Shown here: positions 18,002 through 35,400 of the stretch, in pieces
Numbering within the stretch: position 1 is the first letter of the stretch
Layout of the letters: every line of letters begins with the position of its first letter
Origin: Arachidicoccus soli
GTDB lineage: Bacteria; Bacteroidota; Bacteroidia; Chitinophagales; Chitinophagaceae
DNA: 64,000 bases
Reading direction: 5' to 3'
Assembly: GCF_003600625.1 (NCBI RefSeq)
Contig: NZ_CP032489.1
Span: 2,976,001-3,040,000 of the forward strand
Program-made: the position numbers and the translations under genes
Notes under the pieces: generated by a model
Told to the model about the DNA's origin: nothing
What the model saw: only the letters and a program-made list of their open reading frames with translations
The model's database searches: none

Positions 18002-20632
18002 TTATTCTGTAACGCTTGCACTAGTCTGCATATTTTTACTTCCTTTTTCTTGTTGCACAAAAACAGCTGTAAACATCCATTTATTTGGTGCATACCAAAT
18101 GTCGGAAGCAAATCTTCCAATTGGAGCCTTCACTAAGATTTTATTCCAACCCTTTTTTAAATGTACAATTGCGGGTTTTCGGAAATAATAGTTTTCATCC
18201 ACATAAGGAATTTCCGAATTGCCTTCTTGCCCGGCTCTTTGCCAATGTGGTGGCGCGATTATCCTATCATTTACCCATATTCTACTTTGCAGATTATTCC
18301 AAGTATTTTCCTTTGGAGTAGCTGTTGCAGTAGAGCGAGAAAAATCATAAAAACCAATCCACATAAGTGCCGTGGTATCAATATCGCTCCAATATTTTGA
18401 ATACGCATAATAGGTCGTATTTTTCTTCGGGTTGTCTAATATCCCTTTTACTGCCGGATCCCAGAAATGGCGCAAAATAATTGTCGCCCCGTTCACATCG
18501 ACAGAATTTTTTGTCTTTTCAAAATTAAAATCTCCTCTTTCAGGAGCAAAAGATTTAGACAAATCACCACCATTATCATAAGGCCCGATAAGCTGCCAAT
18601 GAATGTTTGACTGCTTTACATACGGGAAAGGTAACTGTGAGAAAAACTCCTTTTTAATATCTATTAAACGATTTTCAAAAGTAGAAAACGCTTTGTACTC
18701 CTGAGAATTTGTATCACTTAGAGAGACATTATTATCGGTATCATATCCGCCACCTTGCCAGGTTCTCTCCGCAAAAGCGAGCATGGCCGGGTATACCGGA
18801 TTTTGTGTAAGATTCTCTTCACCTGCATTCAATCTCCTATCGTTCCATAAACACAGCGTACCACCCAAATTATTTTTATCACCAGCTTTAGTATCGCAAA
18901 TTTCATGATTAAAAATAGAAACTACACTTTCTTCCGCATCCATGTGGTTGATGTATAGATTGCGTGAATCTATTTGCTGAAACCGACTATCATCAACCAT
19001 TTTACCGGTTCTGGCTTTCCATAACTGTCGTATGACAGAAGGTGTAAATTCTCCTCCGGGATCCCAACCTATTACTTTTTTCCCCTTACTTTCTATCAAA
19101 GCAATCATTTGTGGTAAAAAGCTTCTATTGAAAATCTTTACTTCATCCGCGCCAATATGAATATAGGGAATAGCGTATGTATCGCATATTTCGGTCAAGA
19201 TTTCCTTCATTGTATTTACACCAGAATCGCTTTGCATATCATATCCCATTGCTCTTTTAAATGCTGCGCTATGTCCCGGCATATCAATTTCCGGTACGAG
19301 TGTAATAAAACGCTTTTTACAATAATTGATTAATTCATTCAAATTATCTTCTGTATAAAACATTCCTTGATTGCGCGTCATATTTTTCGCTTCAGTCAAT
19401 TGTGGAAAACCTTTAATCTGCAAACGCCATGCGACATCTTCTGTCAAATGAAAATGAAAAATATTCAACTTCAACGAAGCCATTATATTTATCTGTTGCC
19501 TTAGCAAATCCATTGATTGATAGTTTCTACCCACATCCACCATATAACCGCGCCATGCAAATGCAGGCCAATCGTGAATTTCACAGCCTTCTACAATTGA
19601 CTTATCGCGCATTAATTGCCGCAAAGTTTGTACACCATTAAATAATCCGTGCAAGGTATTAGCGCTCAAAATAATTTTATTACTATCCACTACCAATTTA
19701 TAAGCTTCTTCAGGAAGCATCGCTGCATTTACTTTTTCTATCTTAAGAATAATAGCAAGAGCGCTATTATTTTTCTTTCCAATAGGAATGTTGTATCCAT
19801 TTATTGCGATTATCTTTTGCAAATCAACAGCGATTTTTTTCAAAGAATCATTTGCAATAATGATAGAGCCACATTTATACAAAGGGAAAAAATCATGATG
19901 CCAACTTAATTTTTGTGGCATTGGGAGTAAAGCGGGCTTCGTTTGCAAATCGTACACATAAGAGTAAATTTTGTGCTTCCAAATTTCATAAGCTTCTCCT
20001 TTCAAATGTAAGCCATCATTGGTAAGATGTACATTAAATTTGTCATCTTCAGTAGCTAATAAAGAATGAATATTGATGTAAGTGTATTGATACTTCTCAG
20101 CATTAACTTTCAACACGGTGTTAATCTCCTTTATGGCTTCACTATTGCCTGTGTGATCTCCAAATTTTTTGTAATAACTATTTACCGGCGTAATGCTTTG
20201 AATATAAAGTTGTGTCTTAGGTGTGTTCTTATGAATAATTCTTGCAATTAAGAAAATATTCTTTTCAATACTGTCAGGTTTGATACCTCTTGCCAAATCA
20301 TTGGTACCGATGAGTAAAAATATTTTCGAAGGCTTGCGATTGACTACTTCATCCAGGCGATTCAAAACACCTGCAGTAATATCGCCGCTGATACCGCGAT
20401 TAATAATGTCTGGATCATTATTAAAGAGCTCGTCCCACTCAGCCCCATCAGTAATGCTATTGCCGAGAAAAATGATTTGTCCCTGTTTCTTTGGGAGCGT
20501 CCGAAAATGTGTAACTCTTTGCTGGTAATAGATGGAAAACAGATAATCATTTAACCCCTTAGGAGCTTCCTGCCCAGCTGCATTTGTGAAAATTAATGAC
20601 AAACAAGAAATATATACTAATATTTTTTTCAT
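18002..20632 (-). CDS. SGNH esterase - GH20 beta-N-acetylhexosaminidase fusion
   Basis: An 876-residue secreted protein (signal peptide cut near TNAAGQ) that joins two enzymes. Residues about 45-225 form an SGNH/GDSL hydrolase: GNSIT with Ser59, NRGISGD (block II), GTND at 109-112, and DGLHL with Asp206 and His209. Residues about 235-350 are a GH20 N-terminal (GH20b) domain, and 355-650 the catalytic barrel, with AWRGYMVDVGRN, FHFHLTEDVAWRL, VPEIDMPGHS and HIGADEV, where Asp496-Glu497 are the expected catalytic pair. The last 180 residues look beta-rich and may bind sugar. GH20 removes terminal GlcNAc or GalNAc; the esterase could remove O-acetyl groups. It is the last gene of the sialic acid operon, 2 bases after nagA, so it probably trims the glycan exposed after desialylation. 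Confidence 0.88.
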   Translation of the reverse strand: MKKILVYISCLSLIFTNAAGQEAPKGLNDYLFSIYYQQRVTHFRTLPKKQGQIIFLGNSITDGAEWDELFNNDPDIINRGISGDITAGVLNRLDEVVNRKPSKIFLLIGTNDLARGIKPDSIEKNIFLIARIIHKNTPKTQLYIQSITPVNSYYKKFGDHTGNSEAIKEINTVLKVNAEKYQYTYINIHSLLATEDDKFNVHLTNDGLHLKGEAYEIWKHKIYSYVYDLQTKPALLPMPQKLSWHHDFFPLYKCGSIIIANDSLKKIAVDLQKIIAINGYNIPIGKKNNSALAIILKIEKVNAAMLPEEAYKLVVDSNKIILSANTLHGLFNGVQTLRQLMRDKSIVEGCEIHDWPAFAWRGYMVDVGRNYQSMDLLRQQINIMASLKLNIFHFHLTEDVAWRLQIKGFPQLTEAKNMTRNQGMFYTEDNLNELINYCKKRFITLVPEIDMPGHSAAFKRAMGYDMQSDSGVNTMKEILTEICDTYAIPYIHIGADEVKIFNRSFLPQMIALIESKGKKVIGWDPGGEFTPSVIRQLWKARTGKMVDDSRFQQIDSRNLYINHMDAEESVVSIFNHEICDTKAGDKNNLGGTLCLWNDRRLNAGEENLTQNPVYPAMLAFAERTWQGGGYDTDNNVSLSDTNSQEYKAFSTFENRLIDIKKEFFSQLPFPYVKQSNIHWQLIGPYDNGGDLSKSFAPERGDFNFEKTKNSVDVNGATIILRHFWDPAVKGILDNPKKNTTYYAYSKYWSDIDTTALMWIGFYDFSRSTATATPKENTWNNLQSRIWVNDRIIAPPHWQRAGQEGNSEIPYVDENYYFRKPAIVHLKKGWNKILVKAPIGRFASDIWYAPNKWMFTAVFVQQEKGSKNMQTSASVTE

Positions 20633-20634
20633 CT

Positions 20635-21759
20635 TTATAAAATAATTGTGGAATAGTTATTTAATTCATCATCAAAAACAAAAAACCTTGCGGGGTAACT
20701 CTCTTTAATAAAGCCTATTGAATTGTCTTCCTCAATTGCTTTCGCTACAATACTTGTAGCCATCTTAACAGCCTCCTCTAAAGAGATATTCAAATATTGT
20801 TTAGCATTCTTAACAGCTTCTACCATGGAGATTGCCGCACCTGCCAGATTGCCTTCTTTATTGCGGTACATATTATCTTTAAGTGTAGCATCAAAACTAT
20901 CCCACTCAAAATGTTCCTGTCTTCTTCCGAGGAAAGTACTGTCAGTAATTAAAAACAATTTCTCCTTTTTCAGTCGATATGCAAGTTGAGCTGCAGCATA
21001 ATGGCAATGATGCCCATCTAAAATAATGGACGTATATACATCATCATGCGCTAAAGTTGCGCCTACAAAACCCGGGGCACGATGCGTAAAAGCTGACATC
21101 GCATTGTACAAATGCGTCGCTAGGTGAATACCTTTGCTAAAATAATATTGTGCCTGTTCGTAACTCATATTTGAATGACCAGCGGAGAGCCGGATATTGT
21201 TTTCTTGCAGAAATCTTATCTGCTCATCATTAAAGACCTCTGGTGCAATCGTCATCACTTTTATAACACCTTTCCCATTCTTTACAATCTCCTCCAGTTC
21301 TTTGTCTGTTGGGCGTCGCACAAGGTCTTTATTGTGCGCTCCACGTTTTTCGGGGTTAAAAAATGGCCCCTCCAAGTGCATTCCTAAAGCGCCTGATTGC
21401 GGAAATTTTTCTTGAAAACCCCTTACAGCATCTATTGCTTTTAAAATATTCTCTTTTGTGGAAGAAATTAATGTTGGTAAAAAATAAAGCGTGCCAAAAT
21501 CATGACAAGCATCTGTAATATCTTCCAGTGAGGCTTCATTTATTTCTTTTGAAAAATAATAATGATAGCCGCCATTAATCTGAATATCTATTAATCCGGA
21601 GGAAATATGTTTTCCTTTCAGGTCAATCGCATCAACATTTATTGGAATATCATCCTGTATAGCAATAATCTTCTTGTTCTCCGTGACGATTACCTTATCG
21701 TACAATAATGCATCTCCGGTATGAATAATTCCGTTGATGATAGCTTTTTTATTTCCCAT
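20635..21759 (-). CDS. nagA: N-acetylglucosamine-6-phosphate deacetylase
   Basis: A 374-residue amidohydrolase that converts GlcNAc-6-phosphate to glucosamine-6-phosphate in the cytoplasm. The early SSGLIDIQINGG segment (QxN instead of HxH, as in NagA), the metal ligand Glu in MHLEGPFFN, His residues in SAGHSN and ATHLYNAMSAFTHR, HCHYAA, and the catalytic Asp in LITDST are all present. Neighbours are an EamA transporter 7 bases upstream and the SGNH-GH20 gene 2 bases downstream, so it is within the nan operon. It links the GlcNAc made by the epimerase, once phosphorylated by a kinase not in this window, to amino-sugar catabolism. Confidence 0.93.
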   Translation of the reverse strand: MGNKKAIINGIIHTGDALLYDKVIVTENKKIIAIQDDIPINVDAIDLKGKHISSGLIDIQINGGYHYYFSKEINEASLEDITDACHDFGTLYFLPTLISSTKENILKAIDAVRGFQEKFPQSGALGMHLEGPFFNPEKRGAHNKDLVRRPTDKELEEIVKNGKGVIKVMTIAPEVFNDEQIRFLQENNIRLSAGHSNMSYEQAQYYFSKGIHLATHLYNAMSAFTHRAPGFVGATLAHDDVYTSIILDGHHCHYAAAQLAYRLKKEKLFLITDSTFLGRRQEHFEWDSFDATLKDNMYRNKEGNLAGAAISMVEAVKNAKQYLNISLEEAVKMATSIVAKAIEEDNSIGFIKESYPARFFVFDDELNNYSTIIL

Positions 21760-21766
21760 GTTCCGT

Positions 21767-22696
21767 TTATTCGTTTATCGTTAATTCTTCCTGTATAATT
21801 TGCTGTTCGTTTTTATTCAGTTGCGAAATAACCAATGCAACGATTACGAGTATTACGCCAATTACAGTAAATAAAGAGATTATATCATGTAAGAAAACGG
21901 CCGCAATTCCAAACCCGAAAATAGGTGTAAGAAAGAGCCACATAGAGGCTTTCACTGCATCTTTCTTCAAAAGCCAAAGCCAACATTGTATCGCAAATAT
22001 GGATACAAAAACTGCCAGCCACAATACTGAACCAAAGAATTTCAAAGTAAAATGATTGGCCTTATTATGATAATACAACATGGCAAATGGAAGCAACATC
22101 AGCCCCCCAATCAAAGTTTGCCATCCATTAATGGTTAATATTTTTAAGTCACCCCAATCTTTTCGATTAAAGTAAACTGATGCAGCAGAATAAGACAGCA
22201 TACTTATCAGCATTATCAGCAAGCCTCCCCAAGACACGCTGGCATTCTGCAAAAGTGGATAAGAGGCCACTACAACACCTGCGATACCTAAAAAAAGCGC
22301 AGCCAGAATTACCGGCCTCAATCGTTCTTTTAAAAAGACAACCGAAAGAAATCCTATAAATAAAGGGTTCGTTGCAACGGCTAGTGCACCAATGCCCGCG
22401 GTTACTTTTTGCATTGCCAATACATACAAACCAAGATAAATGGTAATATTCAACAATCCATAAACCAGGAGCATAGTCCATTGTTTTCCTTTAGGTAGAT
22501 TATATTTCAAAATACCATGTGCCACAATTAATATAAGTAAAGAAGCAAAACCAAACCTTGTCAGGGCTATCACCAATGGTTCTGCTACTTCCAAACCGTA
22601 CTTTGTCGCTGTCGAGGCTGATGCCCAGAATAGTGTGAATAATAACCCGGTGGCTATCCAACGAAGAGAAGCGCCATTTTCTTTAAAATATTTCAA
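21767..22696 (-). CDS. EamA/DMT-family transporter
   Basis: A 309-residue inner-membrane protein with about ten hydrophobic helices in two EamA repeats (one up to about residue 150, the second from about 165). Typical DMT features are the ASASTATKYGLE turn after helix 1, LALTRFGFASLL-like helix 2 (here VIALTRFGFASLLILI), and GIGALAVATNPLFIGFLSVVFLKERLR at the end of the first repeat. Its place between the sialidase and nagA, 14 and 7 bases from them, points to transport of a sugar from the pathway such as GlcNAc, ManNAc or a breakdown product. The direction and substrate are inference. DMT carriers are uncommon in described sialic acid loci. Confidence 0.85.
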   Translation of the reverse strand: MKYFKENGASLRWIATGLLFTLFWASASTATKYGLEVAEPLVIALTRFGFASLLILIVAHGILKYNLPKGKQWTMLLVYGLLNITIYLGLYVLAMQKVTAGIGALAVATNPLFIGFLSVVFLKERLRPVILAALFLGIAGVVVASYPLLQNASVSWGGLLIMLISMLSYSAASVYFNRKDWGDLKILTINGWQTLIGGLMLLPFAMLYYHNKANHFTLKFFGSVLWLAVFVSIFAIQCWLWLLKKDAVKASMWLFLTPIFGFGIAAVFLHDIISLFTVIGVILVIVALVISQLNKNEQQIIQEELTINE

Positions 22697-22710: not shown

Positions 22711-23859
22711 TTAATAACGCACTGCTTTAAATTCAATTTTCCGATAACCATCTGCTTCGTACAAAATGCCTATTTCCTTTTTCCTCATTTTTACAATATC
22801 TGAATAGGCCGTATTTCTAGCATCTATCAAGAAAGATTTCTTCCATGTATTTCCGTCATCGTAACTGATACGTAAAGTTAAGCTATCCCGGCCTTTTATG
22901 CTTGCATCATTACAAAAAGCAAGTATATTTTGGTGTTTTTTATATCGTAAAGTAAGCAAAGAGCCTTGACACACCGGGTCCGGCAATTGCTTGTCAAAAT
23001 AAGCTGTATCCCAGGTAGCGCCCCCATCACTACTAATAGCCACTATTCTTTGCAAAACATTTCCTCTTTGGTTACGACTATTCATCATCACACGACCGCC
23101 GGAAAGCTCCGCTGCAGTAGACTCATTGGATCCTCGAAAAGGATTGTCCTCACTAATATGAAAAGTTTTTCCGTGATCATCGGTATAATAACCGTGTGCT
23201 ACATAATCTGTAAAATCACTTTTTGGTGCGCCTTCGGAATGATTTGCGGCAATATAAATCCTTCCTTTATAAGCACCATATTTTAATTGCATGGCATGCC
23301 CCGGAGTATTGGCATAACCACGCCAGTCTTCTTGATGATTCCAACTTGGGTTAATATCCGGCTGATCAATTTTACTTACTTGATTGGTAATATTGGTAGG
23401 ATCGCTCCAGGTCTTTCCATTGTCAATTGAGGTAATATACCATACCTCCCGATAGCCTTTTTTATTTCGAATTTCTCCTTCACTTTTATTCCCCGTATTG
23501 TAAAACAAAAATATCCTTCCCTGGGGATAATTTGGGTCGCTCAAATCCACTACAGGCGCAGCATTACCGGCTTGTAGCTTTTTGTTAGTCGCTACTATTT
23601 GTAAACTGCTCCAGGTTTTACCTTCATCTTTACTCTTTTTCATCACAATATTCACGTGCCCAAAATCGGCACCCCCATTTACACGACCTTCTGCAAAAGC
23701 CAATAAGTCTCCATTGGGCAAATCGATAATTGCAGGAATCCGAAAAGATTGATAACCTTCTTGACCCGATTGAAAAACCGTGACGCCTTCTGTTTTTTGA
23801 GCGAATAAACAAAAAGGGAATAAAAGAGTGAATGCCAGAATTATTTGTTTCAATTTCAT
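22711..23859 (-). CDS. nanH: Exo-alpha-sialidase (GH33)
   Basis: A 382-residue secreted sialidase (signal peptide cut near FCLFAQ). The FRIP motif is at 39-42 with the first arginine of the triad. The AEGRVNGGADFGHVN segment carries the probable acid/base Asp65. Asp-box repeats (SxDxGxTW type) appear as SKDEGKTW, SIDNGKTW, DDHGKTF, SSDGGATW and SYDDGNTW, marking a six-blade propeller. The late GILYEADGYRKI supplies the Glu/Tyr region of the nucleophile. Unlike many Bacteroides sialidases it has no extra N-terminal carbohydrate-binding domain, so it is a minimal catalytic form. It is 1 base from the epimerase gene and should release sialic acid in the periplasm or at the cell surface. Confidence 0.93.
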   Translation of the reverse strand: MKLKQIILAFTLLFPFCLFAQKTEGVTVFQSGQEGYQSFRIPAIIDLPNGDLLAFAEGRVNGGADFGHVNIVMKKSKDEGKTWSSLQIVATNKKLQAGNAAPVVDLSDPNYPQGRIFLFYNTGNKSEGEIRNKKGYREVWYITSIDNGKTWSDPTNITNQVSKIDQPDINPSWNHQEDWRGYANTPGHAMQLKYGAYKGRIYIAANHSEGAPKSDFTDYVAHGYYTDDHGKTFHISEDNPFRGSNESTAAELSGGRVMMNSRNQRGNVLQRIVAISSDGGATWDTAYFDKQLPDPVCQGSLLTLRYKKHQNILAFCNDASIKGRDSLTLRISYDDGNTWKKSFLIDARNTAYSDIVKMRKKEIGILYEADGYRKIEFKAVRY

Positions 23860-23860
23860 T

Positions 23861-25042
23861 TTAAAAATTTATTTCTTTTAATAATTGCATGCAATACCAT
23901 TCTTGTCGAGGCAGATGAAACGGCCCTTTGAATAAATTTCCCTTGGCAGTTTGTGCAATCGTTCCATCGCGATGCAAGTAACCAAACCATTCACCATTTT
24001 CTTTATCGTGAAAATATTTGTAAGCATAATCATGAATCTGTGAATGCCAAGATTTATACTTTTCATCACCCGTCATTGTGTAAGCCAACAATGTAGCAAT
24101 AATGGCTTCGTTTTGTGGCCACCAAAATTTCATGTCTTGCCAATATTCTTGTACGGGTTTATTATAGACATCTTTGAAATATAAGATACCCCCATACTCC
24201 TTATCCCATCCTCGTTCCCACATATAATCGAGCATTTTGCAGCCAAGTGAAATTAGGTGTTTATCATTGTTACGATACTTTGCTTCGTGCAAAATAAACC
24301 AAGCACCTTCAATGGCATGACCCGGATTTAAAGTTCTTCCGTCTATATGGTCGATAATACTTCCCTCGGGTGCTACTTGCTCCATTACACAACGAATATC
24401 ATCTTTCACAAAATAGGTTTCTATTTCTTTTATCCATGTTTCGATCCATTCGTCGCACCTTGGGTAGCCAATCGTTTCGCGCAATTGTTGTGCCGTGTTC
24501 ATCATAATCATGGGTACACCTATTCCTTTTGCGGGGCGTGTATCTTCAAACTTCGCTTGCAACTTTATTTCGCCGCTTGCATAAGCAATACATTTCCCAA
24601 AAATGCTACCTGCTTTTTCCGCAATTTCTTTATCTCCGCTAGCTTTTGCATAAGCCGCCAAAGCAATTACGGCAAAAGTTTCGGAGAAAAAGTATCGGCG
24701 TTTACGAATGGGTTTTCCCTCGCGTGTTACATGGAAAAACATCTGTCCGTCCGCATCAAAACAATGGTTCAATAAAAAATCGACACCAACTTTCGCACCT
24801 TCTAACCATTCTTTTTTTTGCTCAACCGTATTATACAAAGTTGCCAAAAGCCAAGTAGCGCGCCCTTGTATCCAGACCGCTTTGTCGTCATCGATCAAGG
24901 AGCCATCGGCATCGCGCATTAATAAATATCCACCATATTCGTCATCAATACTTCTTGGAAACCAAAATGGTATCGTGTCAGTCAACAATTGATTCTTATA
25001 AAAATCAAAATGCTGTTGTAAATAATTTCTATCTAAGTTCAT
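23861..25042 (-). CDS. nanE: AGE-family N-acylglucosamine 2-epimerase
   Basis: A 393-residue (alpha/alpha)6-barrel epimerase interconverting ManNAc and GlcNAc. Family features are WIQGRATWLLATLYN, FSETFAVIALAAYAKASGD, MIMMNTAQQLRE, LNPGHAIEGAWFILHEA with a conserved His, DYMWERGWDKEYGGILYF, KFWWPQNEAIIATLLAY and the end LFKGPFHLPRQEWYC. There is no signal peptide, so it acts in the cytoplasm on ManNAc made by NanA. Described Bacteroidota sialic acid pathways use this non-phosphorylated route followed by a ROK-family kinase, unlike the ManNAc kinase route of E. coli. It sits 10 bases after the esterase gene and 1 base before the sialidase. The symbol follows Bacteroides usage and is not homologous to E. 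coli nanE. Confidence 0.92.
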   Translation of the reverse strand: MNLDRNYLQQHFDFYKNQLLTDTIPFWFPRSIDDEYGGYLLMRDADGSLIDDDKAVWIQGRATWLLATLYNTVEQKKEWLEGAKVGVDFLLNHCFDADGQMFFHVTREGKPIRKRRYFFSETFAVIALAAYAKASGDKEIAEKAGSIFGKCIAYASGEIKLQAKFEDTRPAKGIGVPMIMMNTAQQLRETIGYPRCDEWIETWIKEIETYFVKDDIRCVMEQVAPEGSIIDHIDGRTLNPGHAIEGAWFILHEAKYRNNDKHLISLGCKMLDYMWERGWDKEYGGILYFKDVYNKPVQEYWQDMKFWWPQNEAIIATLLAYTMTGDEKYKSWHSQIHDYAYKYFHDKENGEWFGYLHRDGTIAQTAKGNLFKGPFHLPRQEWYCMQLLKEINF

Positions 25043-25052
25043 ATCAAAATAT

Positions 25053-27137
25053 TTATTTTACCTTCATCATAAAAGTACTTGCCGGCAAATCTGCGCTATT
25101 TACTAAATTCGCTCTGGTAAAGGGTTTCCAGCCGTATACTACTTTTTCTATTTTTTCATTTTTAGGAATAATAATAAAAATTTTATTGTCGTTAATAATT
25201 GCCTTCGCAGGCATAAAATACCCTTTGTCATTCAACAATTGAAATCCACGCACCTCTTTTTTATCGGAAGTTGTAAGTCCTTCACTTTGCGAAAAACTAA
25301 TTTCTATTTGATTATTTTTTTCTACAACAGATTTTACCAAAGGCCCGTTAGGTATAATTTTCATCGAATTATACGTATAATGCAAAGCCAAATCGGCGAG
25401 GCGCATTCCCACAGGTGTCTTGTTGGTATAATGTACATTCATTTTATCGCCAAGGTCGCTTGTAACGGCCATTCCGGAATTTGGGATCTGGCTTAGTAAT
25501 TCTCTTTGTGCATTTCTAAAATAGTTCCAAGATGGTCGTTCTATGCTAGAAAGCTGTACATAATAAAATGGAAAATTATCCTTCCATTGTTGTCGCCAAT
25601 CATTTACAAATACAGGAAATAATTTTTTATACAATTCCGGGTTATCTGCATCGCTTTCGCCCTGATACCATACAACACCTTTTATTGGAAATGGAATAAT
25701 GTTGGCAATGCCTGCTTCAAAATTAAAGCAAGGGTCGTAAGGGTGCCGTTGGTAAGGCGATGTAGCATTTTTTAAATTTGTATTTATACGCGCTCTACAC
25801 CAGTCCATCAAATAATCGGAATTACGCCAATTGTGTAAAGCTGGTTCAAACAAAGGATTACTTTCCAATGTTAATCTATCTAACCACGAAATCAAGGGTG
25901 ACCCGCCAACCGCTACTTCAATTAATCCAACAGGGACATTTTCTTCCTGCTGAATTTTCTTTCCAAAAATATAACCTACGGCAGAAAACTCTTTTGCAGC
26001 GTTTTCCTTATTTAATTTCCATTGTCCTGAAAAAAAATCCAGATTATCGGCTTTCGTCAAAGCGGCTGAATCCCAAGCCACATTATCGGTTTCAGCAAAA
26101 GGTTTGTATTTGTACAAACGAATATGCTCTTTTTCAATCGCGCGATCTGCGATGCTATCGCCACCTTTTGATTCAGCTAAAGAAAAATACATGTTGGATT
26201 GGCCAGAGCATAACCATACATCGCCCACCAAAATATTTTGAAAAACTAATTTCTTCCCTTCATTTTCTATGCTTAAAGAGTCTGGTTTTGTAGTTGCATT
26301 CATTTTGGGGAAAGTGATTTTCCACTTACCATTTGCTGTTACAATTGTTTCTTTTTCTTGATGATGAAAAGTAACTTCTACTGTTGTTCCGGCATTTGCA
26401 ACGCCCCAAACAATAATTGGTTTGTTGCGTTGCAACACCATATTATCGGTAAAGATATCAGGCATTTTTAATCCCCCAAAATCTCCTGTAATTCCTTTGT
26501 AAATTACATCACAAAGTTTTGCTGCACCTTGTACATTCGGATGTAAGGTAGGCGCATCGGTAAATAAATCAGGGCGATTGTGAAGTGCTTCGTATAAATC
26601 GATCAATCCAGTTTGATTGATTTTTGCTATCTGCTCAATACGTTCCTGCAAATTCCAATACCAATCAAAGGTACTCGACATAAAACGTGGATGACCTGTA
26701 AAAATGGGTGTCATTTTACAGATATAAATTTTCATTTTGGGATTGATTTTTCTAAGTGTATCAATCAACCGGTTATAATCGGGAATAAATTCATCACGAA
26801 AATTAGGAAAGTCGCGCGGATCGGTATCGTTTAATCCCAAATGAATAATGGCGATATCAGGACGCATCTGTAGTGCCTCTGAAAATTCTTTTGTTTTGTA
26901 ATAAGGATTATGGCCCTGTCTCAGCAAAGTGGCACCACTATGACCAAAATTGCCAACGATAAAATTATTGCCTAATTTCTTTTGTAATAGCGCCGGATAA
27001 GATTGAGTTGAGGGATTAGGAAGTGTATATCCATAAGTAACCGAATTACCGATACAAGCGATTTTTATTTTTTGTTTTTGTGCAAAAATATTTTGCGAAA
27101 AAAGAAATATTAAAAACAGTAGTGCTACCTTTTTCAT
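25053..27137 (-). CDS. nanS: Two-domain sialate O-acetylesterase
   Basis: A 694-residue secreted protein (signal peptide cut near NIFAQ). The first SGNH domain (about 22-215) has CIGNSVTYG with Ser32, GHSGAT, LGLND at 100-104 and the DxxH pair Asp194/His199. A beta-rich linker (about 225-300) leads into a second SGNH-type, sialate O-acetylesterase domain with WLCSGQSNM (Ser314), GYIFGKKI, IEVAVGGSPLISW and VVWYQGESDADN. Two-domain esterases of this kind are known from Tannerella and Bacteroides sialic acid loci. They remove O-acetyl groups from sialic acids so that sialidase can work. The gene lies between the MFS carrier (19 bases) and the epimerase (10 bases) in the operon. Confidence 0.9.
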   Translation of the reverse strand: MKKVALLFLIFLFSQNIFAQKQKIKIACIGNSVTYGYTLPNPSTQSYPALLQKKLGNNFIVGNFGHSGATLLRQGHNPYYKTKEFSEALQMRPDIAIIHLGLNDTDPRDFPNFRDEFIPDYNRLIDTLRKINPKMKIYICKMTPIFTGHPRFMSSTFDWYWNLQERIEQIAKINQTGLIDLYEALHNRPDLFTDAPTLHPNVQGAAKLCDVIYKGITGDFGGLKMPDIFTDNMVLQRNKPIIVWGVANAGTTVEVTFHHQEKETIVTANGKWKITFPKMNATTKPDSLSIENEGKKLVFQNILVGDVWLCSGQSNMYFSLAESKGGDSIADRAIEKEHIRLYKYKPFAETDNVAWDSAALTKADNLDFFSGQWKLNKENAAKEFSAVGYIFGKKIQQEENVPVGLIEVAVGGSPLISWLDRLTLESNPLFEPALHNWRNSDYLMDWCRARINTNLKNATSPYQRHPYDPCFNFEAGIANIIPFPIKGVVWYQGESDADNPELYKKLFPVFVNDWRQQWKDNFPFYYVQLSSIERPSWNYFRNAQRELLSQIPNSGMAVTSDLGDKMNVHYTNKTPVGMRLADLALHYTYNSMKIIPNGPLVKSVVEKNNQIEISFSQSEGLTTSDKKEVRGFQLLNDKGYFMPAKAIINDNKIFIIIPKNEKIEKVVYGWKPFTRANLVNSADLPASTFMMKVK

Positions 27138-27156: not shown

Positions 27157-28392
27157 TTAATCTGAGAAATCATTAACTTTTGGTCGGAGAAAATACAATT
27201 GGACAACCAAGACAATAAATACGACTATCGAAAGCATGGCAAAGCTTTTACCTAAGCTATGATTATCAGTAGCTTTTCCGAGTAGTTCCGTAATATAAGC
27301 TCCAAAAAATACACCTACCATATTCATAATACCGTAAGCTGTTCCTCTATGTTTTGAAGATACAAATTGACAAAGAATGGGCATGTTATTCGCATCAAAT
27401 AATCCGTATCCAAAACCAAAACAGACACCCGCAGCTATGATATGATATACATTTGTTCCAAAGCCCAACAATAATAATGAAGGTATGGTAAGCGCAAGGC
27501 CTATAGCGCTTGTATAGACTCTGCCACGTACATTTTTTTGCACCCATCTGTCAGAAAATATACCTCCGAAAATCACACCGATTAAGGAGGCAACCGAAAT
27601 AGTAATCGTAGCCATGGGTCCTGCCTGAGACATAGGTATATGCAGGCTTTTGGCAAATAAGGTAGGCAGCCAGTTCTTCGTGGCCCACCCGGGTAGACTA
27701 AGTGTGGCAAAGAATAATAATATAATCCAAAAAGAAGGGTTGCGTAGTATCAGTTTTAAATCATGTAATGGGTTTTTGTTTTTTGAATTTGAAATAGTGT
27801 TGCCAGTAACTTCTTCATCCGGGTTTTTTCCCTTTAAGAAAAGAAGGCAAAGAATTGCGTAACCGATACCCATCAATCCAAAAGAATGAAAGGTTATATG
27901 CCAAGTATAAGCCGCAGCAACAGTAGCGCCGAAGCCCCCTAATGCTGAACCGATGTATAGGCCGGTCATATGAATACCAATGGCCAAAGATCTCGTTTTG
28001 TCCCTGTGAAAGTCCGCTATTAATGCTAAGGCGGTAGGGATGTACAATGCCTCACTCACGCCCATTATCGCTCGCAACCAATACAATTGATTGAAGGTAG
28101 TAGCATAGCCCATGCCATAAGTAACACCGGACCATACAAATAAGCTACCTACTATCAACCATTTTTTATTGATTCTATCCGCGATAATTCCGGCTACCGG
28201 GCTCATAAAACCATAAATCCATAAAAAAATACCCATCAATATACCAAAGTTGGTAGCTGATTTTAACTCTGCAATATCTATTTGCATGGCTGGCCGCATG
28301 GTGGCAAGCATCTGCCGATCCATATAATTTAATAACCCTACACCCCACAATAGCGCTACCAATACCCAAGGATATATTTTTTTATATTTCAT
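27157..28392 (-). CDS. nanT: MFS transporter, probable sialic acid permease
   Basis: A 411-residue inner-membrane carrier with about twelve hydrophobic helices. The first helix ends in LLNYMDRQMLATMRP, the N-D-R motif common in ACS-family symporters. The loop between helices 2 and 3 has AGIIADRINKKW, the MFS motif A, and a second copy GGIFSDRW lies in the C-terminal half. A central cytoplasmic loop (KGKNPDEEVTGNTISNSKNK) divides the halves. Position between the nanM and nanS genes makes free N-acetylneuraminate the likely cargo, as for Bacteroidota NanT. The 186-base gap to nanM is the longest gap among the genes downstream of nanA. Confidence 0.85.
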   Translation of the reverse strand: MKYKKIYPWVLVALLWGVGLLNYMDRQMLATMRPAMQIDIAELKSATNFGILMGIFLWIYGFMSPVAGIIADRINKKWLIVGSLFVWSGVTYGMGYATTFNQLYWLRAIMGVSEALYIPTALALIADFHRDKTRSLAIGIHMTGLYIGSALGGFGATVAAAYTWHITFHSFGLMGIGYAILCLLFLKGKNPDEEVTGNTISNSKNKNPLHDLKLILRNPSFWIILLFFATLSLPGWATKNWLPTLFAKSLHIPMSQAGPMATITISVASLIGVIFGGIFSDRWVQKNVRGRVYTSAIGLALTIPSLLLLGFGTNVYHIIAAGVCFGFGYGLFDANNMPILCQFVSSKHRGTAYGIMNMVGVFFGAYITELLGKATDNHSLGKSFAMLSIVVFIVLVVQLYFLRPKVNDFSD

Positions 28393-28578: not shown

Positions 28579-29751
28579 TTATTGGCTTTTGATGGCACCA
28601 ATAATAATGTCTGCCGAACGCACGCCGGCTCTAATTTCACCACAAGGAATAACCACCTCATTTCCCCATAACAATGCCGTAGTCGTTACTTGTCCTACAA
28701 ACGGAATGGAGTCAATGGCTTTCCATGTATCGCTAACCGTATTATATGCCAAAACTTCATGCGAAAAGCCCGGATGATTTTCTTGTAATTTATTCTTTTC
28801 TGCAATTAATAGCTGTTTAGCAGTCGCATTTTTTTCTTTTGAAATTTGCATTAGCAAATCTTCTGTTTTATGAAAAGTTTTCCCTTGATCGCCGCTAAAA
28901 ACCAACAAGGTATTCTCACCAAAAGCCAGGCCGGTATGAGCAGAGAGTGCATACGGCAAAGATGCTTTCTGGGACCATTGATTTGTTTTTAAATTAAATT
29001 GATAAACATCATTATATAAATCACTGGTAGAATCTATATTCATTTTTCTACCACCAACTAAATATAGGCATTTATCTTTCCCGTTTGATTGAACATACAA
29101 AACAGAATAGGCAACAGGCTTTTTTAATGAAGGTAAAACTTGCCAACCTTTACTTGTATCTTCCAGATTGAGCTTGTACAATTGGTTGGAAGCTCCATTT
29201 GCATTTTGCCCGCCTGCAAAATAAATAGTATTTCCGTCTACCGCAACTGCCCCAGCCGAAAGGCTTTGAGGCAAATCAGGCAAGGTACCAATTTCGATAT
29301 TTTGCGAAGCCTCATTCCAATTCAGTAATAAAACTTTATCAGTCGTTCCATTTTCGTTCTCCCCACCAGCAACTACAATTCCTTTGCCAGTTGTGCAATT
29401 AGCACTGTAAGCAAGCGTGTAGGGCAATATCAAACCCCGTTTTACGAGGACGAGCCTATCTCCTTCTCTTTTAAATGCAAAAACCTCTTTATAAAACTGT
29501 TTTTTCCCTCCTTCCCAAGGAAGTTTACCGGAGAAATTTGAACCGCCGCCCACTAAAAAGATATCATTGCTAATACCCACAACTGCACCAGCCAGGCCAG
29601 CAGAAGGTGAGCCATCAAGGTTCTTAGGTAAATGGCCGGCCATCTTCCATTCAAATTGAAGCATTACTTTTTTATTGTGAATAGAAGATTCTAAACAGGA
29701 TGGTACCATGGTAGAAAATAATATAGCTGTAGAAAATAGTAAAGATTTCAT
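28579..29751 (-). CDS. nanM: Kelch-type N-acetylneuraminate epimerase / mutarotase
   Basis: A 390-residue secreted protein of the cyclically permuted mutarotase (NanM) family. The N-terminus MKSLLFSTAILFSTMVPSCL looks like a lipoprotein signal with Cys at about residue 19. The rest is a six-bladed kelch propeller: repeated GG doublets in SNDIFLVGGGSNF, GIVVAGGENENG, NTIYFAGGQNANG and LYLVGGRKMN, each followed by a Tyr/Leu strand. NanM converts the alpha anomer of N-acetylneuraminate released by sialidase to the beta anomer taken up by cells. It is 16 bases after nanA and is followed by the transporter gene, which fits an extracytoplasmic role before uptake. Confidence 0.9.
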   Translation of the reverse strand: MKSLLFSTAILFSTMVPSCLESSIHNKKVMLQFEWKMAGHLPKNLDGSPSAGLAGAVVGISNDIFLVGGGSNFSGKLPWEGGKKQFYKEVFAFKREGDRLVLVKRGLILPYTLAYSANCTTGKGIVVAGGENENGTTDKVLLLNWNEASQNIEIGTLPDLPQSLSAGAVAVDGNTIYFAGGQNANGASNQLYKLNLEDTSKGWQVLPSLKKPVAYSVLYVQSNGKDKCLYLVGGRKMNIDSTSDLYNDVYQFNLKTNQWSQKASLPYALSAHTGLAFGENTLLVFSGDQGKTFHKTEDLLMQISKEKNATAKQLLIAEKNKLQENHPGFSHEVLAYNTVSDTWKAIDSIPFVGQVTTTALLWGNEVVIPCGEIRAGVRSADIIIGAIKSQ

Positions 29752-29767
29752 AAATGAGTTTTATTTA

Positions 29768-30685
29768 TTACACTGATTTGAAACTTTGAAACCCTACGCC
29801 GTCAACGTCACTTTTAAATAACTCAAATCGCTCTTTCGTCATATTTTTTACCGGCAACCGAAATTCACCGCAATCCAATCCTATCAATTTCATAAAGGCT
29901 TTACCTGTAGCAATACCACCATATTTTCCCAAAAGGCGAATCATATCAATAGATTGTTGTTGTAGCTTTCTGGCTAATTCAAAATCATTGTTTTCATAGG
30001 CGGCAATTAAATTATTATACAAAGGTGCTGCATAGTTGTAAGTGCTGCCTACTGCGCCTTTTGAGCCGAGTATCAATGCAGATAACATATTCTCATCTCT
30101 ACCCCAAAGCATATCATATTTTCCATTTTCCAAGCTTAAACAAGAAAGAAAATCCATAAAATCTTCGTGTGTATATTTTACACCGGCAAAGTTTTCAATC
30201 TTACCATCTATCGCATTCAACAAATCATACATCGCTACATTTACACCGGTAAGCACCGGTATATGATAGTAATAAAATGGCATACCCGGAATAGCATCCG
30301 CAACAATTTTGCATACTTCCGCTAAAGCATTTACATTGGGTTTAAAATAAAAAGGTGCAGTAAAAGCGGTTGCATAAAGCCCTTGAGCTTGCGCATGTGT
30401 AGCTAAATCAATACAATCGGCAAGGCAAGTTCCACCTACTAATGTAATTACTTTAAATTCATCATCATCTTTGGTTGCAGCAGCCCATGCTTCTGCATGT
30501 AATTTTTTCTCATCTAATGTAAGAGAAACGCCTTCGCCTGTAGAACCATTTATGAATGCGCCTTTTATATCATTGCGTTTTAAGAAAGCATAATAGTCCT
30601 TAACCAAAGATAAGTTAAGTTTTCCCTCTACATCCATTGCTGTAAAAGGAGCGGCAATAAGCCCTTGTATTTTTTGTATTTTCAT
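29768..30685 (-). CDS. nanA: N-acetylneuraminate lyase
   Basis: A 305-residue class I aldolase of the DapA/NanA superfamily that splits N-acetylneuraminate into ManNAc and pyruvate in the cytoplasm. The sequence shows GLIAAPFTAMD at the N-terminus, the pyruvate-binding INGSTGEG at 46-52, YYYHIP at 138-143 with the catalytic Tyr, and GVKYTHED with the Schiff-base Lys170. YYYHIP and the Lys context are typical of lyases rather than dihydrodipicolinate synthase, and the neighbours settle it. It is the first enzyme gene after susCD, separated from susD by a 143-base gap holding a hairpin. Confidence 0.94.
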   Translation of the reverse strand: MKIQKIQGLIAAPFTAMDVEGKLNLSLVKDYYAFLKRNDIKGAFINGSTGEGVSLTLDEKKLHAEAWAAATKDDDEFKVITLVGGTCLADCIDLATHAQAQGLYATAFTAPFYFKPNVNALAEVCKIVADAIPGMPFYYYHIPVLTGVNVAMYDLLNAIDGKIENFAGVKYTHEDFMDFLSCLSLENGKYDMLWGRDENMLSALILGSKGAVGSTYNYAAPLYNNLIAAYENNDFELARKLQQQSIDMIRLLGKYGGIATGKAFMKLIGLDCGEFRLPVKNMTKERFELFKSDVDGVGFQSFKSV

Positions 30686-30828: not shown

Positions 30829-32373
30829 TTAATACCCATGTGTTTGCGTTAATAATGGATAGCTGTTGAGCATGGAAACCGTAATAGGCAATTCCAATGT
30901 TGGGCCATGACCGGAATTAACGGTAGTTGCAGACAAATATTGAGGATTAATATAATGATAGACCCATTTATCACCGGCTCTTCTCAAAGCCCACCAACGC
31001 TGACCTTCACCAATAAATTCCCTTAACTCTTCTTCCAATACTGCTTGCATATTGTCATCGACACTTCCACTTACAAAAGGTATAAAAGAATTGCCGTATG
31101 CCCGCAGTCTAATCAAATTTATTTCAGCCGAAGGATCCTCACCTAACTTCGCTTTAGCCTCAGCCATCAATAATAATACATCGGCATAACGATAAATGGG
31201 AAAATCATTATTATAAACCTGCGTTGTTCCAGAAGTTGAACCAATCCATTTGGTAAGCATTACACCACGAACATTATAGGGAGCACTTGTAGAATACATT
31301 ACTTTAAATGAATTTGCAATTCGCTGATCAGCCGGTCCACTTGTCAACTTGGTAATCATGGCTTGATTCATTCCAACCCTGTTTGCGCCACCAACATAAG
31401 GATATACAGATGAAACTGTAGGAGATTCAGCCTGAGCAAAGGATAACGTAGTCGCTTGAATACTATTAACAGTAAACTCAGAGAAGGTTCCTTGCGTAGC
31501 CTGACTAAGTTCGTAGCTCAAAGCAAATATTATCTCTGGGTTATTCGCTTTTTTATTTGGGTCGAAAATATCTGCATAATTAGTATCTAAATTTAAAGTA
31601 CTTCCTTGCAAATTTTCGACTTCTTGTAAAGCATTTTTTGCCGTCGTTAAATCAGCATTTCCGCCCCCCATTAATGTTCCTGACCAAAGATAAACATCTC
31701 CTTTTAAAGTAAGGGTAGCTAACCTATTCCAATAGACACGATTCCCGGAAGGGAAAGAATTATCATTGTTAAACAAGGTAAGAGATTGCTCAATATCGCT
31801 TTTAATTTGCATCATTACAGAATCTGCAGAAGCTCTTGGCTTATATGTTTCAGCAGCATTAGCAATATGTTGAATTGGTTCAGTAACGAGTGGAACAGCA
31901 CCCCAAGTTTTCAGCATCGTATAATAAACATAGGCTCTTAAACCATACATTTCTGCCAATTCTTTTGTTCTTTGTGCAACGGGTAATGGTGTTTTCGGGA
32001 AAATATTAATTACATTATTTATTTGGTAAATCAATGCGTAAAAACCTGCCCAATTCCCATAAGGTGCATTTAATGCACTTATATTTTGATCATACAATTG
32101 CTGATAACCGCCGTCCCCAGATTCTGTGTAAAGCCCATCAGTCCATATCTCTGAGCGCATTTCACCCAGAGCAAAGAAAGTATTGTTGTATGCTCTGAAT
32201 CTGGCATATACGCCGGTATATAATGTTTGTGCCGCATTGGGGTCTGTAAGCGCTAGGGATGTACTTATCTGATCTTGTGGAAGCACTTCATTTAATTGCT
32301 TTTGACAAGAGTTGAAAGCAAAAAGAAAAGCAGGTCCAAGCAAGAGATAAATATATGATTTATACTTTTTCAT
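30829..32373 (-). CDS. SusD/RagB-family sialoglycan-binding lipoprotein
   Basis: A 514-residue surface lipoprotein: signal ending FAFNSCQKQL with lipobox Cys at about residue 23, then the SusD start LNEVLPQDQIS. Typical SusD features are the N-terminal TPR-like helices (AQTLYTGVYARFRAYNN, KELAEMYGLRAYVYYTMLKTWGAVPLV) and the C-terminal block with PIYRYADVLLLMAEAKAKLG, AEINLIRLRAYG, and EELREFIGEGQRWWALRRAGDKW. It forms a complex with the SusC channel encoded immediately upstream, with 41 bases between the genes, and binds the glycan at the surface. Its ligand is inferred from the operon to be sialic acid or sialylated oligosaccharide (the NanU role). Confidence 0.92.
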   Translation of the reverse strand: MKKYKSYIYLLLGPAFLFAFNSCQKQLNEVLPQDQISTSLALTDPNAAQTLYTGVYARFRAYNNTFFALGEMRSEIWTDGLYTESGDGGYQQLYDQNISALNAPYGNWAGFYALIYQINNVINIFPKTPLPVAQRTKELAEMYGLRAYVYYTMLKTWGAVPLVTEPIQHIANAAETYKPRASADSVMMQIKSDIEQSLTLFNNDNSFPSGNRVYWNRLATLTLKGDVYLWSGTLMGGGNADLTTAKNALQEVENLQGSTLNLDTNYADIFDPNKKANNPEIIFALSYELSQATQGTFSEFTVNSIQATTLSFAQAESPTVSSVYPYVGGANRVGMNQAMITKLTSGPADQRIANSFKVMYSTSAPYNVRGVMLTKWIGSTSGTTQVYNNDFPIYRYADVLLLMAEAKAKLGEDPSAEINLIRLRAYGNSFIPFVSGSVDDNMQAVLEEELREFIGEGQRWWALRRAGDKWVYHYINPQYLSATTVNSGHGPTLELPITVSMLNSYPLLTQTHGY

Positions 32374-32414
32374 CTTAAAGAATATTTTATTTAAAACAAA
32401 TGATTTTAATTTTT

Positions 32415-35400
32415 CTATAATGATACTGTAGCTCCAAAAGTCAATCTACGTGGAAGTGGATACTTACCATTGTCAATGCCCCCTGTTTCAGGGAAATTAC
32501 CGCTATAAGGTGTGAAATACGCAAGGTTTCCACCGGATACATAAACTCTAAGTGCCTTTACCTTATTTACAAATACTCTTTTTAATAGATTTTGAGTCAT
32601 GTCATAACTAAGTGTCAATTCTCTTAGTGCTACATAATCTCCCTTTTCCCACATATTTGCCGGAGGATTGTTTCCAGATGCGTCTGTAGCAAAGTTTCGT
32701 CCTTGATTAGCCCAATAAAATCTTGGCAAAGTACCATTAGGATTTGTAGGAGACCAGGTATTTAATGCGTCAACTGTAGAATTTTGAGAGCCCTGTACTT
32801 GGCTGAGTCCTCTTAATTTTTCATTATTCAATATTACAAAGCCTAAAGCATAGTCAAAGGCAGCATACAAACTAAATCCTTTGTATGAAATATTGGTGGA
32901 GAAACTTCCACTTACGGTAGGTGTGGTTCTGCCCACATAAACAAATTGCCTTGAATCAATTGTATCATTTTTATAAACCTGATGCCATTTTGCGTCACCT
33001 AATTGTTTTAATGTTTTGTTTTTATATGGCAGGAAGGCATTGTAAACATTGGCATCAGCATTTATCATGTCTTGAGAAGTGTAAATACCGTCCCATTTTG
33101 GAGCCCATACTTCATCCAAACCTACCCTTTGTCCTTCTATCAATCCGCCCACTTGCATTAACTGCCCTGGATGATTTGGATCCCAAACTTGCATCGTACT
33201 TTGTCTATTACCTGGTAAACCATTGAATGGAAGTTTGATAGCATAATTTTTCACTGTATAAAAATTAGCATTAAAATCAATACCCAATCCATCTGGTTGT
33301 ATTGGTTGGATTATTCTAGCATTCAAGCTTAGCTCCAATCCTCTATTTTGTAATTCCCCCAAATTGGTCGTATAACTAGAGAATCCACTTGTTGGATCAA
33401 TTCCTAATGAAGCAATTTTATCATATACATTTCTAATAAAATAATCTCCAATTAAAGTGATCCGATCATTCCATAAACCTATATCAGCACCAAAGTTGGT
33501 GGAGGCCGATTTTTCCCATTTCAAATCAGTATTTATGTATGAACCCACGTAAGTGCCACCATTCCCATTATAGATACCGGCATTGTTATAAACCTGCGCA
33601 GTTGGAAAATATATCTGGTTACCTTTCGCATCTTTAAAAGATTGGATGCTCCCGTTTTCACCCCAGCTTACACGTGGTCTGAATGTACTTACAATTTTAC
33701 TGATATTACTATTCTTAAAGAAGTCTTCTTTTTGCATATTCCAACCTAATGAAACTCCAGGGAAGAAGCCATAATGATTTTGAGAAGAGAGCCTGCTAGA
33801 TCCATCGTAACGAAAATTAGCGGTCAAGAAATACAAATCCTTATAAGAATAATTTATTCTACCAATGGCAGAAGACAACCGCTCCCAGGCACTAAAATCT
33901 GAGGAAGCACCTGCCGGGTTTTGAATTCCACCATTTACGACACTTGGCACAGTAGATGCCGTAAGCCATGGAATAAGGTCTGTGGGAGCTCCTTGTGCGT
34001 AACCCGTATTATAATAATACTTATAATCATAAAATTCAGCACCAGCCATTGCTGAAAGATGATGAACGCCATTCAATGTTTTGTTGTACTCAAAAAAAGC
34101 ATTGTAGGTATATTGCTGATCATGCGAATTGCTGAAGGATGCTTTCCTATTATTGTTGTAAGCTCCTCCACTTCCCATTTGGTAGGATTTGGTAAAATAA
34201 TTATTATAATCGTAACGCATATAACCTGAACCAGAAGCTTTAAAATGCAAATAAGGTAAAATTGTCCAATCGAGGTTTACCCCTCCCATAAACCTTTGTT
34301 CAGTTGAAGAATTATTATAAATTGTACTCCAATACGCCGGATTCCCTAAAGTTGGATCATTAGGACCAGGGAGCGCAACGCCTGAAGTATCATTAGAATA
34401 TCTCACTGTAGGTGCTACACCAATAAAACGTTGAAGTAAACCACCCGTACCACCGCCTCCTGAGGGGTCATTATAAGGGACTGAAGTATTTACTGTATAA
34501 GCAGAAGTATTCATAGAAACCTTCAGGTTCTTTCCAATATTCAAACCACCATTAAAATTCATGTTTAATCGCTTCAAACCGGAGCCTATAATGATACCAT
34601 TATCTTTGACTAAACCCAATCCTAGTGCAAAGTTACCTTGCTCATTTGCTCCTGAGAAATCAAGATGATGTTCAGTAGTATTGGTCTGTTGAAAGATCAT
34701 GTTTTCACGATCTGCAACAGTTTGTTCACGATATAAAATACTATCCATCTGTCCTGCGACAAAAGGATTAGGATCTACCAACAATTTCCATCCAGGAGTA
34801 TTCAATAATTGTCTATTATCATTACCAAGTAACTGAGTTGTATATAAACCAACAGGTGATTTAAAGCCATTATTCAGGGCCCATCCCCAGGAACCTTGCA
34901 ATTGTCCTTTATCCGTATTAGCCGCATTGGTGTTACCATCAGCTAAATCTGCAGCATACCTTGCACCAATACCCTCTCTATTAAGGCTTATATACTGTGC
35001 AGCCGTTAAATAATCAGAAGGGTTTTTACGCGTAAAGTTTGTCGTTTGCCTAACTGTATAAGTGATTTGAGAATGCCCATTTTTACCTTTTTTTGTAGTA
35101 ATTAGCAATACTCCATTAGACGCCCTTGCACCATATATTGCTGTTGATGCCGCATCTTTTAATAAGTCAATGGATTGTACATCGTCCATATCTATTCCAT
35201 AAACCGATGGAACGACAATTCCATCTAAAACGACTAATGGACCACCACTTCCACCCCAATCATTTCCTCCTCGAAAAACAATATTGGGCGTACTACCCGG
35301 TTGGCCTGTGGACTGCGAAACACTTAACCCCGGAACTGTACCTTGCAATACAGTACCAATATTACTTGTAGGAGAAGATTTGAAAGCGCGAGGATTTACA

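What the first reader, a model, noticed from the sequence alone, without database searches (positions are those of the whole stretch)
18002..20632. SGNH esterase fused to GH20 hexosaminidase at the end of a sialic acid operon
Both halves keep their catalytic residues (Ser59/Asp206/His209 and Asp496/Glu497). A deacylase joined to an exo-hexosaminidase suggests stepwise trimming of O-acetylated GlcNAc/GalNAc or of glycans still carrying acetyl groups after desialylation. The locus already has a two-domain sialate O-acetylesterase, so this third SGNH domain may have another target.
Basis: partly seen in the sequence, partly recalled or inferred. Interest (0 to 1): 0.5.

Follow-up and report, generated by a model that had tools for sequence, protein, structure and literature searches.

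The report
Sialic-acid deacetylase fused to a hexosaminidase
A bacterium that eats sialic acid carries one protein that joins an enzyme of the kind that strips acetyl 'locks' from sialic acid to an enzyme that cuts off N-acetyl-sugars; the pairing recurs widely in related bacteria and probably lets one protein unlock and then help dismantle sugar chains.

Summary
Window 18002-20632, minus strand, is one intact 876-aa ORF: probable signal peptide, SGNH esterase, GH20b, divergent GH20 catalytic domain, and a C-terminal beta-sandwich with no Pfam match. It is the last gene of a sialic-acid (nan) operon. Ser59/Asp206/His209 and Asp496/Glu497 are conserved in 34 of 34 aligned fusions.

It is of the EstA/PvSAE type, whose characterised members remove 9-O-acetyl groups from mucin sialic acids: 48% identical to P. 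vulgatus PvSAE, best fold match Z 29.8. The SGNH domain of the operon's other esterase is hardly related in sequence. In three Bacteroidales the same GH20 and an EstA gene lie side by side as separate genes; one EstA is 89% identical to PvSAE.

The fusion is not unique: 23 of 195 genomes of the bacterial family have it, and all 23 have the nan epimerase, against 11 of 172 without it.

Most likely it is a periplasmic enzyme with two activities. GH20 specificity is open; its -1 site has an almost invariant N562-H563/D598-R599 signature. No activity was measured.

The parts
18002..20632 (-). whole fusion gene, 876 aa plus stop
   Evidence: 22 other full-length orthologues in the family
20558..20632 (-). 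residues 1-25, probable type I signal peptide (periplasmic)
   Evidence: read from the sequence: Lys-Lys, hydrophobic stretch, small residues before QEAP; no signal-peptide program was available; no clear lipobox seen
19946..20542 (-). SGNH esterase domain, residues 31-229, EstA/PvSAE type; S59 codon 20456-20458, D206 20015-20017, H209 20006-20008
19568..19936 (-). GH20b domain, residues 233-355
18644..19561 (-). GH20 catalytic domain with trailing helix, residues 358-663; D496 19145-19147, E497 19142-19144; N562 18947-18949, H563 18944-18946, D598 18839-18841, R599 18836-18838
   Evidence: only the first third matches the Pfam model, the rest by alignment to the genome's own GH20s and by fold
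18047..18631 (-). C-terminal beta-sandwich domain, residues 668-862, no Pfam match
   Evidence: best fold match is the N-terminal jelly roll of GH2 enzymes, Z 8.5, so weak
20635..21759 (-). NagA, N-acetylglucosamine-6-phosphate deacetylase, directly upstream
   Evidence: TIGR00221 317.9 bits, cut-off 225.65
21767..22696 (-). EamA-family transporter
22711..23859 (-). sialidase (BNR_2)
23861..25042 (-). AGE epimerase (N-acylglucosamine 2-epimerase, NanE-II type)
25053..27137 (-). other esterase of the operon: SGNH plus SASA domains, NanS-like
27157..28392 (-). MFS transporter
28579..29751 (-). NanM-like mutarotase
29768..30685 (-). NanA-like lyase (DHDPS family)
30829..35783 (-). SusD (30829-32373) and SusC (32415-35783), NanU/NanO-like position
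36049..36768 (+). divergent GntR/FCD regulator

Best explanation
The gene encodes a secreted, probably periplasmic enzyme with two activities. The N-terminal EstA-type SGNH domain removes O-acetyl groups (9-O by homology) from sialic acids on sialoglycans that the SusCD pair has brought in, so that the operon's sialidase can release them. The GH20 half then removes terminal beta-N-acetylhexosamine (GlcNAc or GalNAc) exposed on, or next to, the desialylated chain. Neu5Ac, and probably the hexosamine, enter the cell and meet in the NanA, AGE and NagA route. The likely advantage of the fusion is co-secretion, fixed 1:1 amounts and possibly work on one antenna in cis; SGNH dimerisation (interface residues kept) would make it a four-active-site dimer. 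Shown here: architecture, intact catalytic residues, homology, linkage to nan genes, separate side-by-side genes elsewhere. Inferred: substrates, order of action, location, dimer.
For: SGNH half: best PDB sequence hits are PvSAE 7pzg and 6njc (E about 4e-52); 48% identity; best fold match 7pzg, Z 29.8, rmsd 1.5, 198 residues, against Z 24.6 and 23.6 for the next SGNH enzymes. Triad, N111 and GNS motif shared; G83 33 of 34; interface Q38 34, R39 33, E65 34, E68 31, R79 31 of 34. Tree: 27 standalone SGNHs from other loci form one side of a 100/98 branch, all fused ones and PvSAE the other. G63, beside the catalytic Ser block, is in 34 of 34 fused, 7 of 7 nan-linked standalone (PvSAE and the split L117 included) and 5 of 27 others. 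Separate neighbours: GH20 gene then EstA gene, 1-12 bp apart, in L144 Odoribacter, L151 Bacteroides caecigallinarum, L152 Phocaeicola faecalis; the L152 EstA is 88.8% identical to PvSAE. Linkage: AGE in 23 of 23 fusion genomes against 11 of 172 others. GH20 half: R369, W402, H454, D496, E497, W523, W538, Y560 in 109 of 109 homologues; best GH20 fold match 3sur Z 28.3.
Against: No activity was measured. Nan-unlinked standalone SGNHs are almost as similar to PvSAE (34-48%), so identity alone does not fix specificity. 15 of 36 named fusions have no nan gene within the fetched flank (some contigs short); some sit beside GH123 and GH27 or GH2 genes, so a broader glycan role is possible, although the 13 of those 15 whose genomes are held have an AGE homologue and a sialidase match elsewhere (one of them, G197, only a 39% AGE). 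Many GH20 orthologues have no SGNH half (44 of 80 GH20 ORFs). One SGNH domain (L050) falls outside the main fused group.
Confidence: 0.7

Rival explanations
1. The SGNH half deacetylates the hexosamine or another sugar, so that the GH20 half can cut it: in-cis removal of O-acetyl groups from GlcNAc/GalNAc.
For: The deacylase is fused to a hexosaminidase, not to a sialidase; 15 of 36 named fusions lie outside nan clusters within the flank, some beside GH123/GH27/GH2 genes; SGNH enzymes as a class are versatile (recalled).
Against: Closest in sequence, fold and tree to sialate 9-O-acetylesterase; every fusion genome tested has sialic-acid genes; stand-alone EstA sits beside the same GH20 in Bacteroidales.
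Confidence: 0.15
2. The fusion is only a convenience of expression: two independent enzymes share a signal peptide, with no gain from being joined. (Compatible with the same two activities as the best explanation.)
For: The joined and unjoined states alternate on the GH20 tree (9 changes, 8 forced), so the link is dispensable; other nan enzymes are fused in other pairings (L099, L103, L141, L143, L151).
Against: The joined form is held across several bacterial families at about 50% sequence identity with both sites intact in 34 of 34.
Confidence: 0.35
3. One half is catalytically dead and serves as a binding module.
For: The GH20 catalytic domain is divergent: Pfam's model matches only its first third and the -1 site has N562 and D598 where most of this genome's other GH20s have D and E.
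Against: Complete SGNH triad and GH20 D-E pair, conserved without exception in 34 of 34 fusions and D-E in 109 of 109 GH20 homologues.
Confidence: 0.07

Closest known systems
EstA of Bacteroides fragilis / PvSAE of Phocaeicola vulgatus (sialate 9-O-acetylesterases; PMC5512079, PMC9063846)
   Same: SGNH domain with Ser-His-Asp triad, GNS motif, oxyanion residues, dimer-interface residues; 48% identity to PvSAE over the domain; sialic-acid locus
   Different: PvSAE is a single-domain protein (EstA, 81% identical to it by PMC9063846, is taken to be one too); here the domain is the N-terminal part of a GH20 protein
GH20 exo-beta-N-acetylhexosaminidases, nearest fold Paenibacillus TS12 Hex1 (3sur, 3gh4)
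   Same: GH20b plus barrel, D-E catalytic pair, subsite -1 Arg, Trp and Tyr residues
   Different: N562 and D598 in place of the D and E seen in 3gh4 and in most of this genome's other GH20s; extra SGNH and C-terminal domains
Two-domain NanS-type sialate O-acetylesterases (SGNH plus SASA), as in this operon
   Same: same pathway, SGNH superfamily
   Different: its SGNH domain is only distantly related (BLASTP E 0.016)
SiaBb3 of Bifidobacterium bifidum, GH33 sialidase joined to GH123 beta-GalNAcase (PMC12856340, abstract read)
   Same: one polypeptide that combines a sialic-acid step with a beta-HexNAc step
   Different: different domains: sialidase and GH123 there, sialate esterase and GH20 here

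Membership tests
EstA/PvSAE sialate 9-O-acetylesterases | SGNH fold closest to PvSAE | tested here: met
   7pzg Z 29.8, rmsd 1.5, 198 residues, 47%; sequence E 3.7e-52
EstA/PvSAE sialate 9-O-acetylesterases | Ser-His-Asp triad, Gly/Asn oxyanion hole, GNS block I | tested here: met
   S59, H209, D206, N111 34 of 34; G83 33 of 34; GNS read
EstA/PvSAE sialate 9-O-acetylesterases | dimer-interface residues Gln31, Arg32, Glu58, Glu61, Arg71 | tested here: met
   Q38 34, R39 33, E65 34, E68 31, R79 31 of 34
EstA/PvSAE sialate 9-O-acetylesterases | same side of the tree as nan-linked EstA, apart from other SGNHs | tested here: met
   branch 100/98 separates 27 others; where the root lies is not known
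EstA/PvSAE sialate 9-O-acetylesterases | releases 9-O-acetyl from bound sialic acid | not testable with these tools
   needs an assay
GH20 | GH20b plus catalytic barrel with D-E pair and -1 site aromatic residues | tested here: met
GH20 | beta-N-acetylhexosaminidase activity | not testable with these tools
   needs an assay
GH20 6-sulfo-GlcNAcases of the HexA-alpha/Bt4394 type | Asn then Arg after the catalytic Tyr (YLNR, YYINR; PMC11659886) | tested here: inconclusive
   Asn met in 109 of 109, the next residue is His in 108 of 109, not Arg
Lacto-N-biosidase (LnbB type GH20) | Gln190 in place of Arg and Asp467 after the Trp | tested here: not met
   R369 kept in 109 of 109, although D598 resembles Asp467 (residues from PMC8004761 and PMC4449183)
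Bacteroidetes sialic-acid utilisation operon | lyase, AGE epimerase, transporter, sialidase, SusCD, NagA | tested here: met
   kinase RokA and NagB not looked for

The most novel reading that the evidence does not exclude
The GH20 half defines a separate clade whose -1 site (Y560-x-N562-H563 and W596-x-D598-R599, almost invariant) is tuned to hexosamines bearing or next to an acidic group, such as 6-sulfo-GlcNAc or beta-GalNAc beside a sialic acid (Sda/GM2-like antennae). The fusion would then be a single-polypeptide unlocker of O-acetylated acidic antennae: esterase in cis, sialidase from the same operon, then GH20.
Probability: 0.12. Interest if true: 0.6.

Novelty: new variant of a known kind. 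Interest (0 to 1): 0.38.

Why it matters
Acetyl groups on sialic acids shield mucin-type glycans from sialidases. A protein that joins the unlocking esterase to a downstream glycosidase would show that bacteria of several families package this step with the next one. It also gives a ready bifunctional reagent for glycan analysis, and a testable case of whether fusion of pathway enzymes speeds up work on one antenna. The uncharacterised GH20 clade with its own -1 site signature is a second target for assay.

Tried and rejected
Compensation between the two esterases: among named loci with a SASA ORF, 6 of 17 fused loci keep the SGNH N-domain on the SASA enzyme against 21 of 26 loci without any EstA (Fisher p 0.004; 5 more loci with separate EstA not in this test, 4 of 5 keep it). 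On the GH20 tree only 4 independent pairs exist and they show nothing, so this is not claimed.

Loss or gain: on the GH20 tree the joined state changes 9 times, at least 8 by starred branches (SH-aLRT only; partial rows L118, L121, L125, L126 left out), while fused SGNH domains cluster. One early fusion with repeated loss of the SGNH half fits, but transfer is not excluded. Of 14 genomes with the GH20 alone, 5 have no SGNH homologue at E 1e-20; in the other 9 the best is 37-45% identical.

Short loop 2 with a remote element (PMC4449183): considered, dropped, because the alignment to 3gh4 shows a loop of nearly the same length.

C-terminal domain: no Pfam family in the window copy; 1 of 33 members matched OST_P2 at E 0.089; Foldseek gave nothing at E 0.001 or better; VIA-align Z at most 8.5. 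Function left open. No coordinates of the models are given out, so contact between the domains could not be examined.

Signature not unique: the print of 4pys (B. fragilis GH20) also shows Asn and Asp near these two positions, though the alignment there is weak; one of this genome's own GH20s (L068) has YFNR.

Literature: open-access papers only; (sialate O-acetylesterase, hexosaminidase, fusion, GH20) found 0 papers, and no listing described an SGNH-GH20 protein. This is not proof that it is undescribed. PMC4449183 holds none of the words lipase, GDSL, SGNH; PMC5512079 none of hexosaminidase, fused, fusion.

Full report
What is there. The gene at 18002-20632 is on the minus strand, 876 aa, one ORF. 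Pfam finds Lipase_GDSL_2, Glyco_hydro_20b and Glyco_hydro_20; the last model matches only its first 111 of 348 positions, because the rest of the catalytic domain is divergent and lacks several loops that the genome's own GH20s have. AlphaFold2 on an alignment of 34 fusions gives pLDDT 87.9 and pTM 0.88. Residues 668-862 form a C-terminal beta-sandwich without a Pfam family, weakly like the N-terminal jelly roll of GH2 enzymes (Z 8.5).

Surroundings. On the minus strand the order is SusC, SusD, NanA-like lyase, NanM, MFS transporter, SGNH-SASA esterase, AGE epimerase, sialidase, EamA transporter, NagA, fusion, with gaps of a few bases near the end; a GntR/FCD regulator is divergent. This is the Bacteroidetes route in which NanE-II epimerises ManNAc directly to GlcNAc (PMC10017367, passages read).

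The SGNH half. The best PDB sequence hits are the P. vulgatus sialic acid esterase entries 7pzg and 6njc, and the best fold match is 7pzg, Z 29.8, rmsd 1.5 over 198 residues, clearly above the next SGNH enzymes at Z 24.6 and 23.6. Identity to PvSAE is 48%. Triad, oxyanion and interface residues named in PMC9063846 (outline and passages read) are kept. B. [quoted passage not shown] Against this, nan-unlinked standalone SGNHs in the same bacterial family are 34-48% identical to PvSAE. A tree of 69 rows separates 27 of these on one side of a 100/98 branch from all 34 fused and 7 nan-linked standalone domains, PvSAE included; its outgroup is far away, so the root is unsure. G63 and D120 are shared by fused (34 and 33 of 34) and nan-linked (7 of 7) rows but by only 5 of 27 others each; a third such column, 224, holds Pro in 29 of 34 and 7 of 7 rows but Ser in the window; the two control comparisons gave one column each. 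The operon's other esterase has an SGNH domain with BLASTP E 0.016 to the fusion, so the two are not recent copies. In this genome no other SGNH comes close.

Side by side elsewhere. A scan of named genomes kept the best 80 of at least 588 loci. In these, 36 ORFs are fused, 44 are GH20 without SGNH, and 6 separate EstA-type ORFs lie in the same loci. In L144 (Odoribacter), L151 (Bacteroides caecigallinarum) and L152 (Phocaeicola faecalis) the GH20 gene is followed directly by the EstA gene; the L152 EstA is 88.8% identical to PvSAE. L117 (Adhaeribacter) has the two halves as overlapping ORFs, which could be a split or a frameshift.

Linkage to sialic acid. Of 195 genomes in the family, 23 have the full fusion (own included), 6 a GH20-only orthologue at 45-51% identity, and one (G190) a 36% homologue counted here as none. 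The AGE epimerase at E 1e-150 or better is in 34 of 195: 23 of 23, 6 of 6 and 5 of the remaining 166; Fisher p 6e-22 for the fusion, not corrected for kinship. Of 36 named fusions the numbers are 18, 3 and 15; some contigs are short, and the two sets share a few genomes. Of those 15, 13 genomes are held, and all 13 have an AGE homologue (12 of them at 77% identity or more; G197 39%) and a sialidase match. Four of the loci without nan genes sit by GH123 with GH27 or GH2 genes, or by GH92 (L087, L088, L096, L081); L076 sits by another GH2 gene, while the neighbours tested in L092 and L116 are not glycosidases (10 neighbours from 7 of the 15 loci were scanned). Across 395 genomes of the phylum, 10 match at E 1e-140: 4 with the full fusion, all in this family, and 6 GH20 only. 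The named scan nevertheless holds fusions from Sphingobacteriaceae, Hymenobacteraceae, Flavobacteriaceae, Saprospiraceae and Chitinophagaceae.

The GH20 half. In 109 homologues D496, E497, R369, H454, W523, W538, Y560 and N562 are invariant; H563 is in 108, D598 in 108, R599 in 106. The six other GH20s of this genome have D, P, N, D, D, D at the N562 position and E, E, E, E, E, D at D598. Human HexA alpha (YLNR) and Bt4394 (YYINR) use Asn and Arg here to hold a 6-sulfate (PMC11659886, passages; PMC8162980, passage), so an acidic neighbour is thinkable; His in place of Arg makes this uncertain. It is not an LnbB-type lacto-N-biosidase by its Arg (PMC8004761 and PMC4449183, passages). An actual specificity cannot be read from this.

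How it most likely works. Shown: architecture, intact sites, homology, linkage, side-by-side genes. Inferred: export to the periplasm, 9-O-deacetylation of sialoglycans before the operon's sialidase acts, then removal of a beta-HexNAc. Removal of GlcNAc from a LacNAc arm would also need a beta-galactosidase, and none was seen among the operon's genes, so beta-GalNAc next to sialic acid or core GlcNAc are simpler targets. The bifunctional SiaBb3 (GH33 plus GH123, PMC12856340 abstract) is a precedent for joining a sialic-acid step and a HexNAc step.

Verdict. The finding is real and well conserved, but it is a joining of two known enzyme types in a known pathway.

Noticed in passing
L099:7399-11388: Triple fusion SASA + SGNH + GH20, 1329 aa, in a MAG, in a nan cluster.
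   Followed up: partly
L141:8932-13551; L143; L151: Other fusions among nan enzymes: GH20 + SASA + NanM (1539 aa, Parabacteroides acidifaciens) and SASA + NanM (1072 and 1025 aa). Periplasmic sialic-acid enzymes seem to be joined in many combinations.
   Followed up: partly
L103:5070-8987: SASA esterase fused to a different GH20 (1305 aa) in Sediminibacterium salmoneum, next to the SGNH-GH20 fusion.
   Followed up: no
L087, L088, L096: In Pontibacter, Rufibacter and Flavobacterium the fusion sits beside GH123 and GH27 or GH2 genes, not nan genes.
   Followed up: partly
window 18047-18631: C-terminal beta-sandwich domain of the fusion has no Pfam family and many invariant residues (30 invariant columns in 33 rows).
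   Followed up: partly
L068 (own genome, C1:4013720-4014787): Another GH20 of this genome carries YFNR after the catalytic Tyr, the HexA-alpha/Bt4394-like Asn-Arg pair linked to 6-sulfate binding.
   Followed up: no
window 5956-7389: Reverse transcriptase with group II intron maturase domain.
   Followed up: no
window 21767-22696: EamA-family transporter inside the nan operon, kept next to AGE, NagA or the fusion in several relatives (L035, L038, L039, L041, L042); substrate unknown.
   Followed up: no
L154, L158, L163, L164: Tandem arrays of PvSAE-like SGNH genes outside nan clusters in genomes of the same family; role unknown.
   Followed up: no
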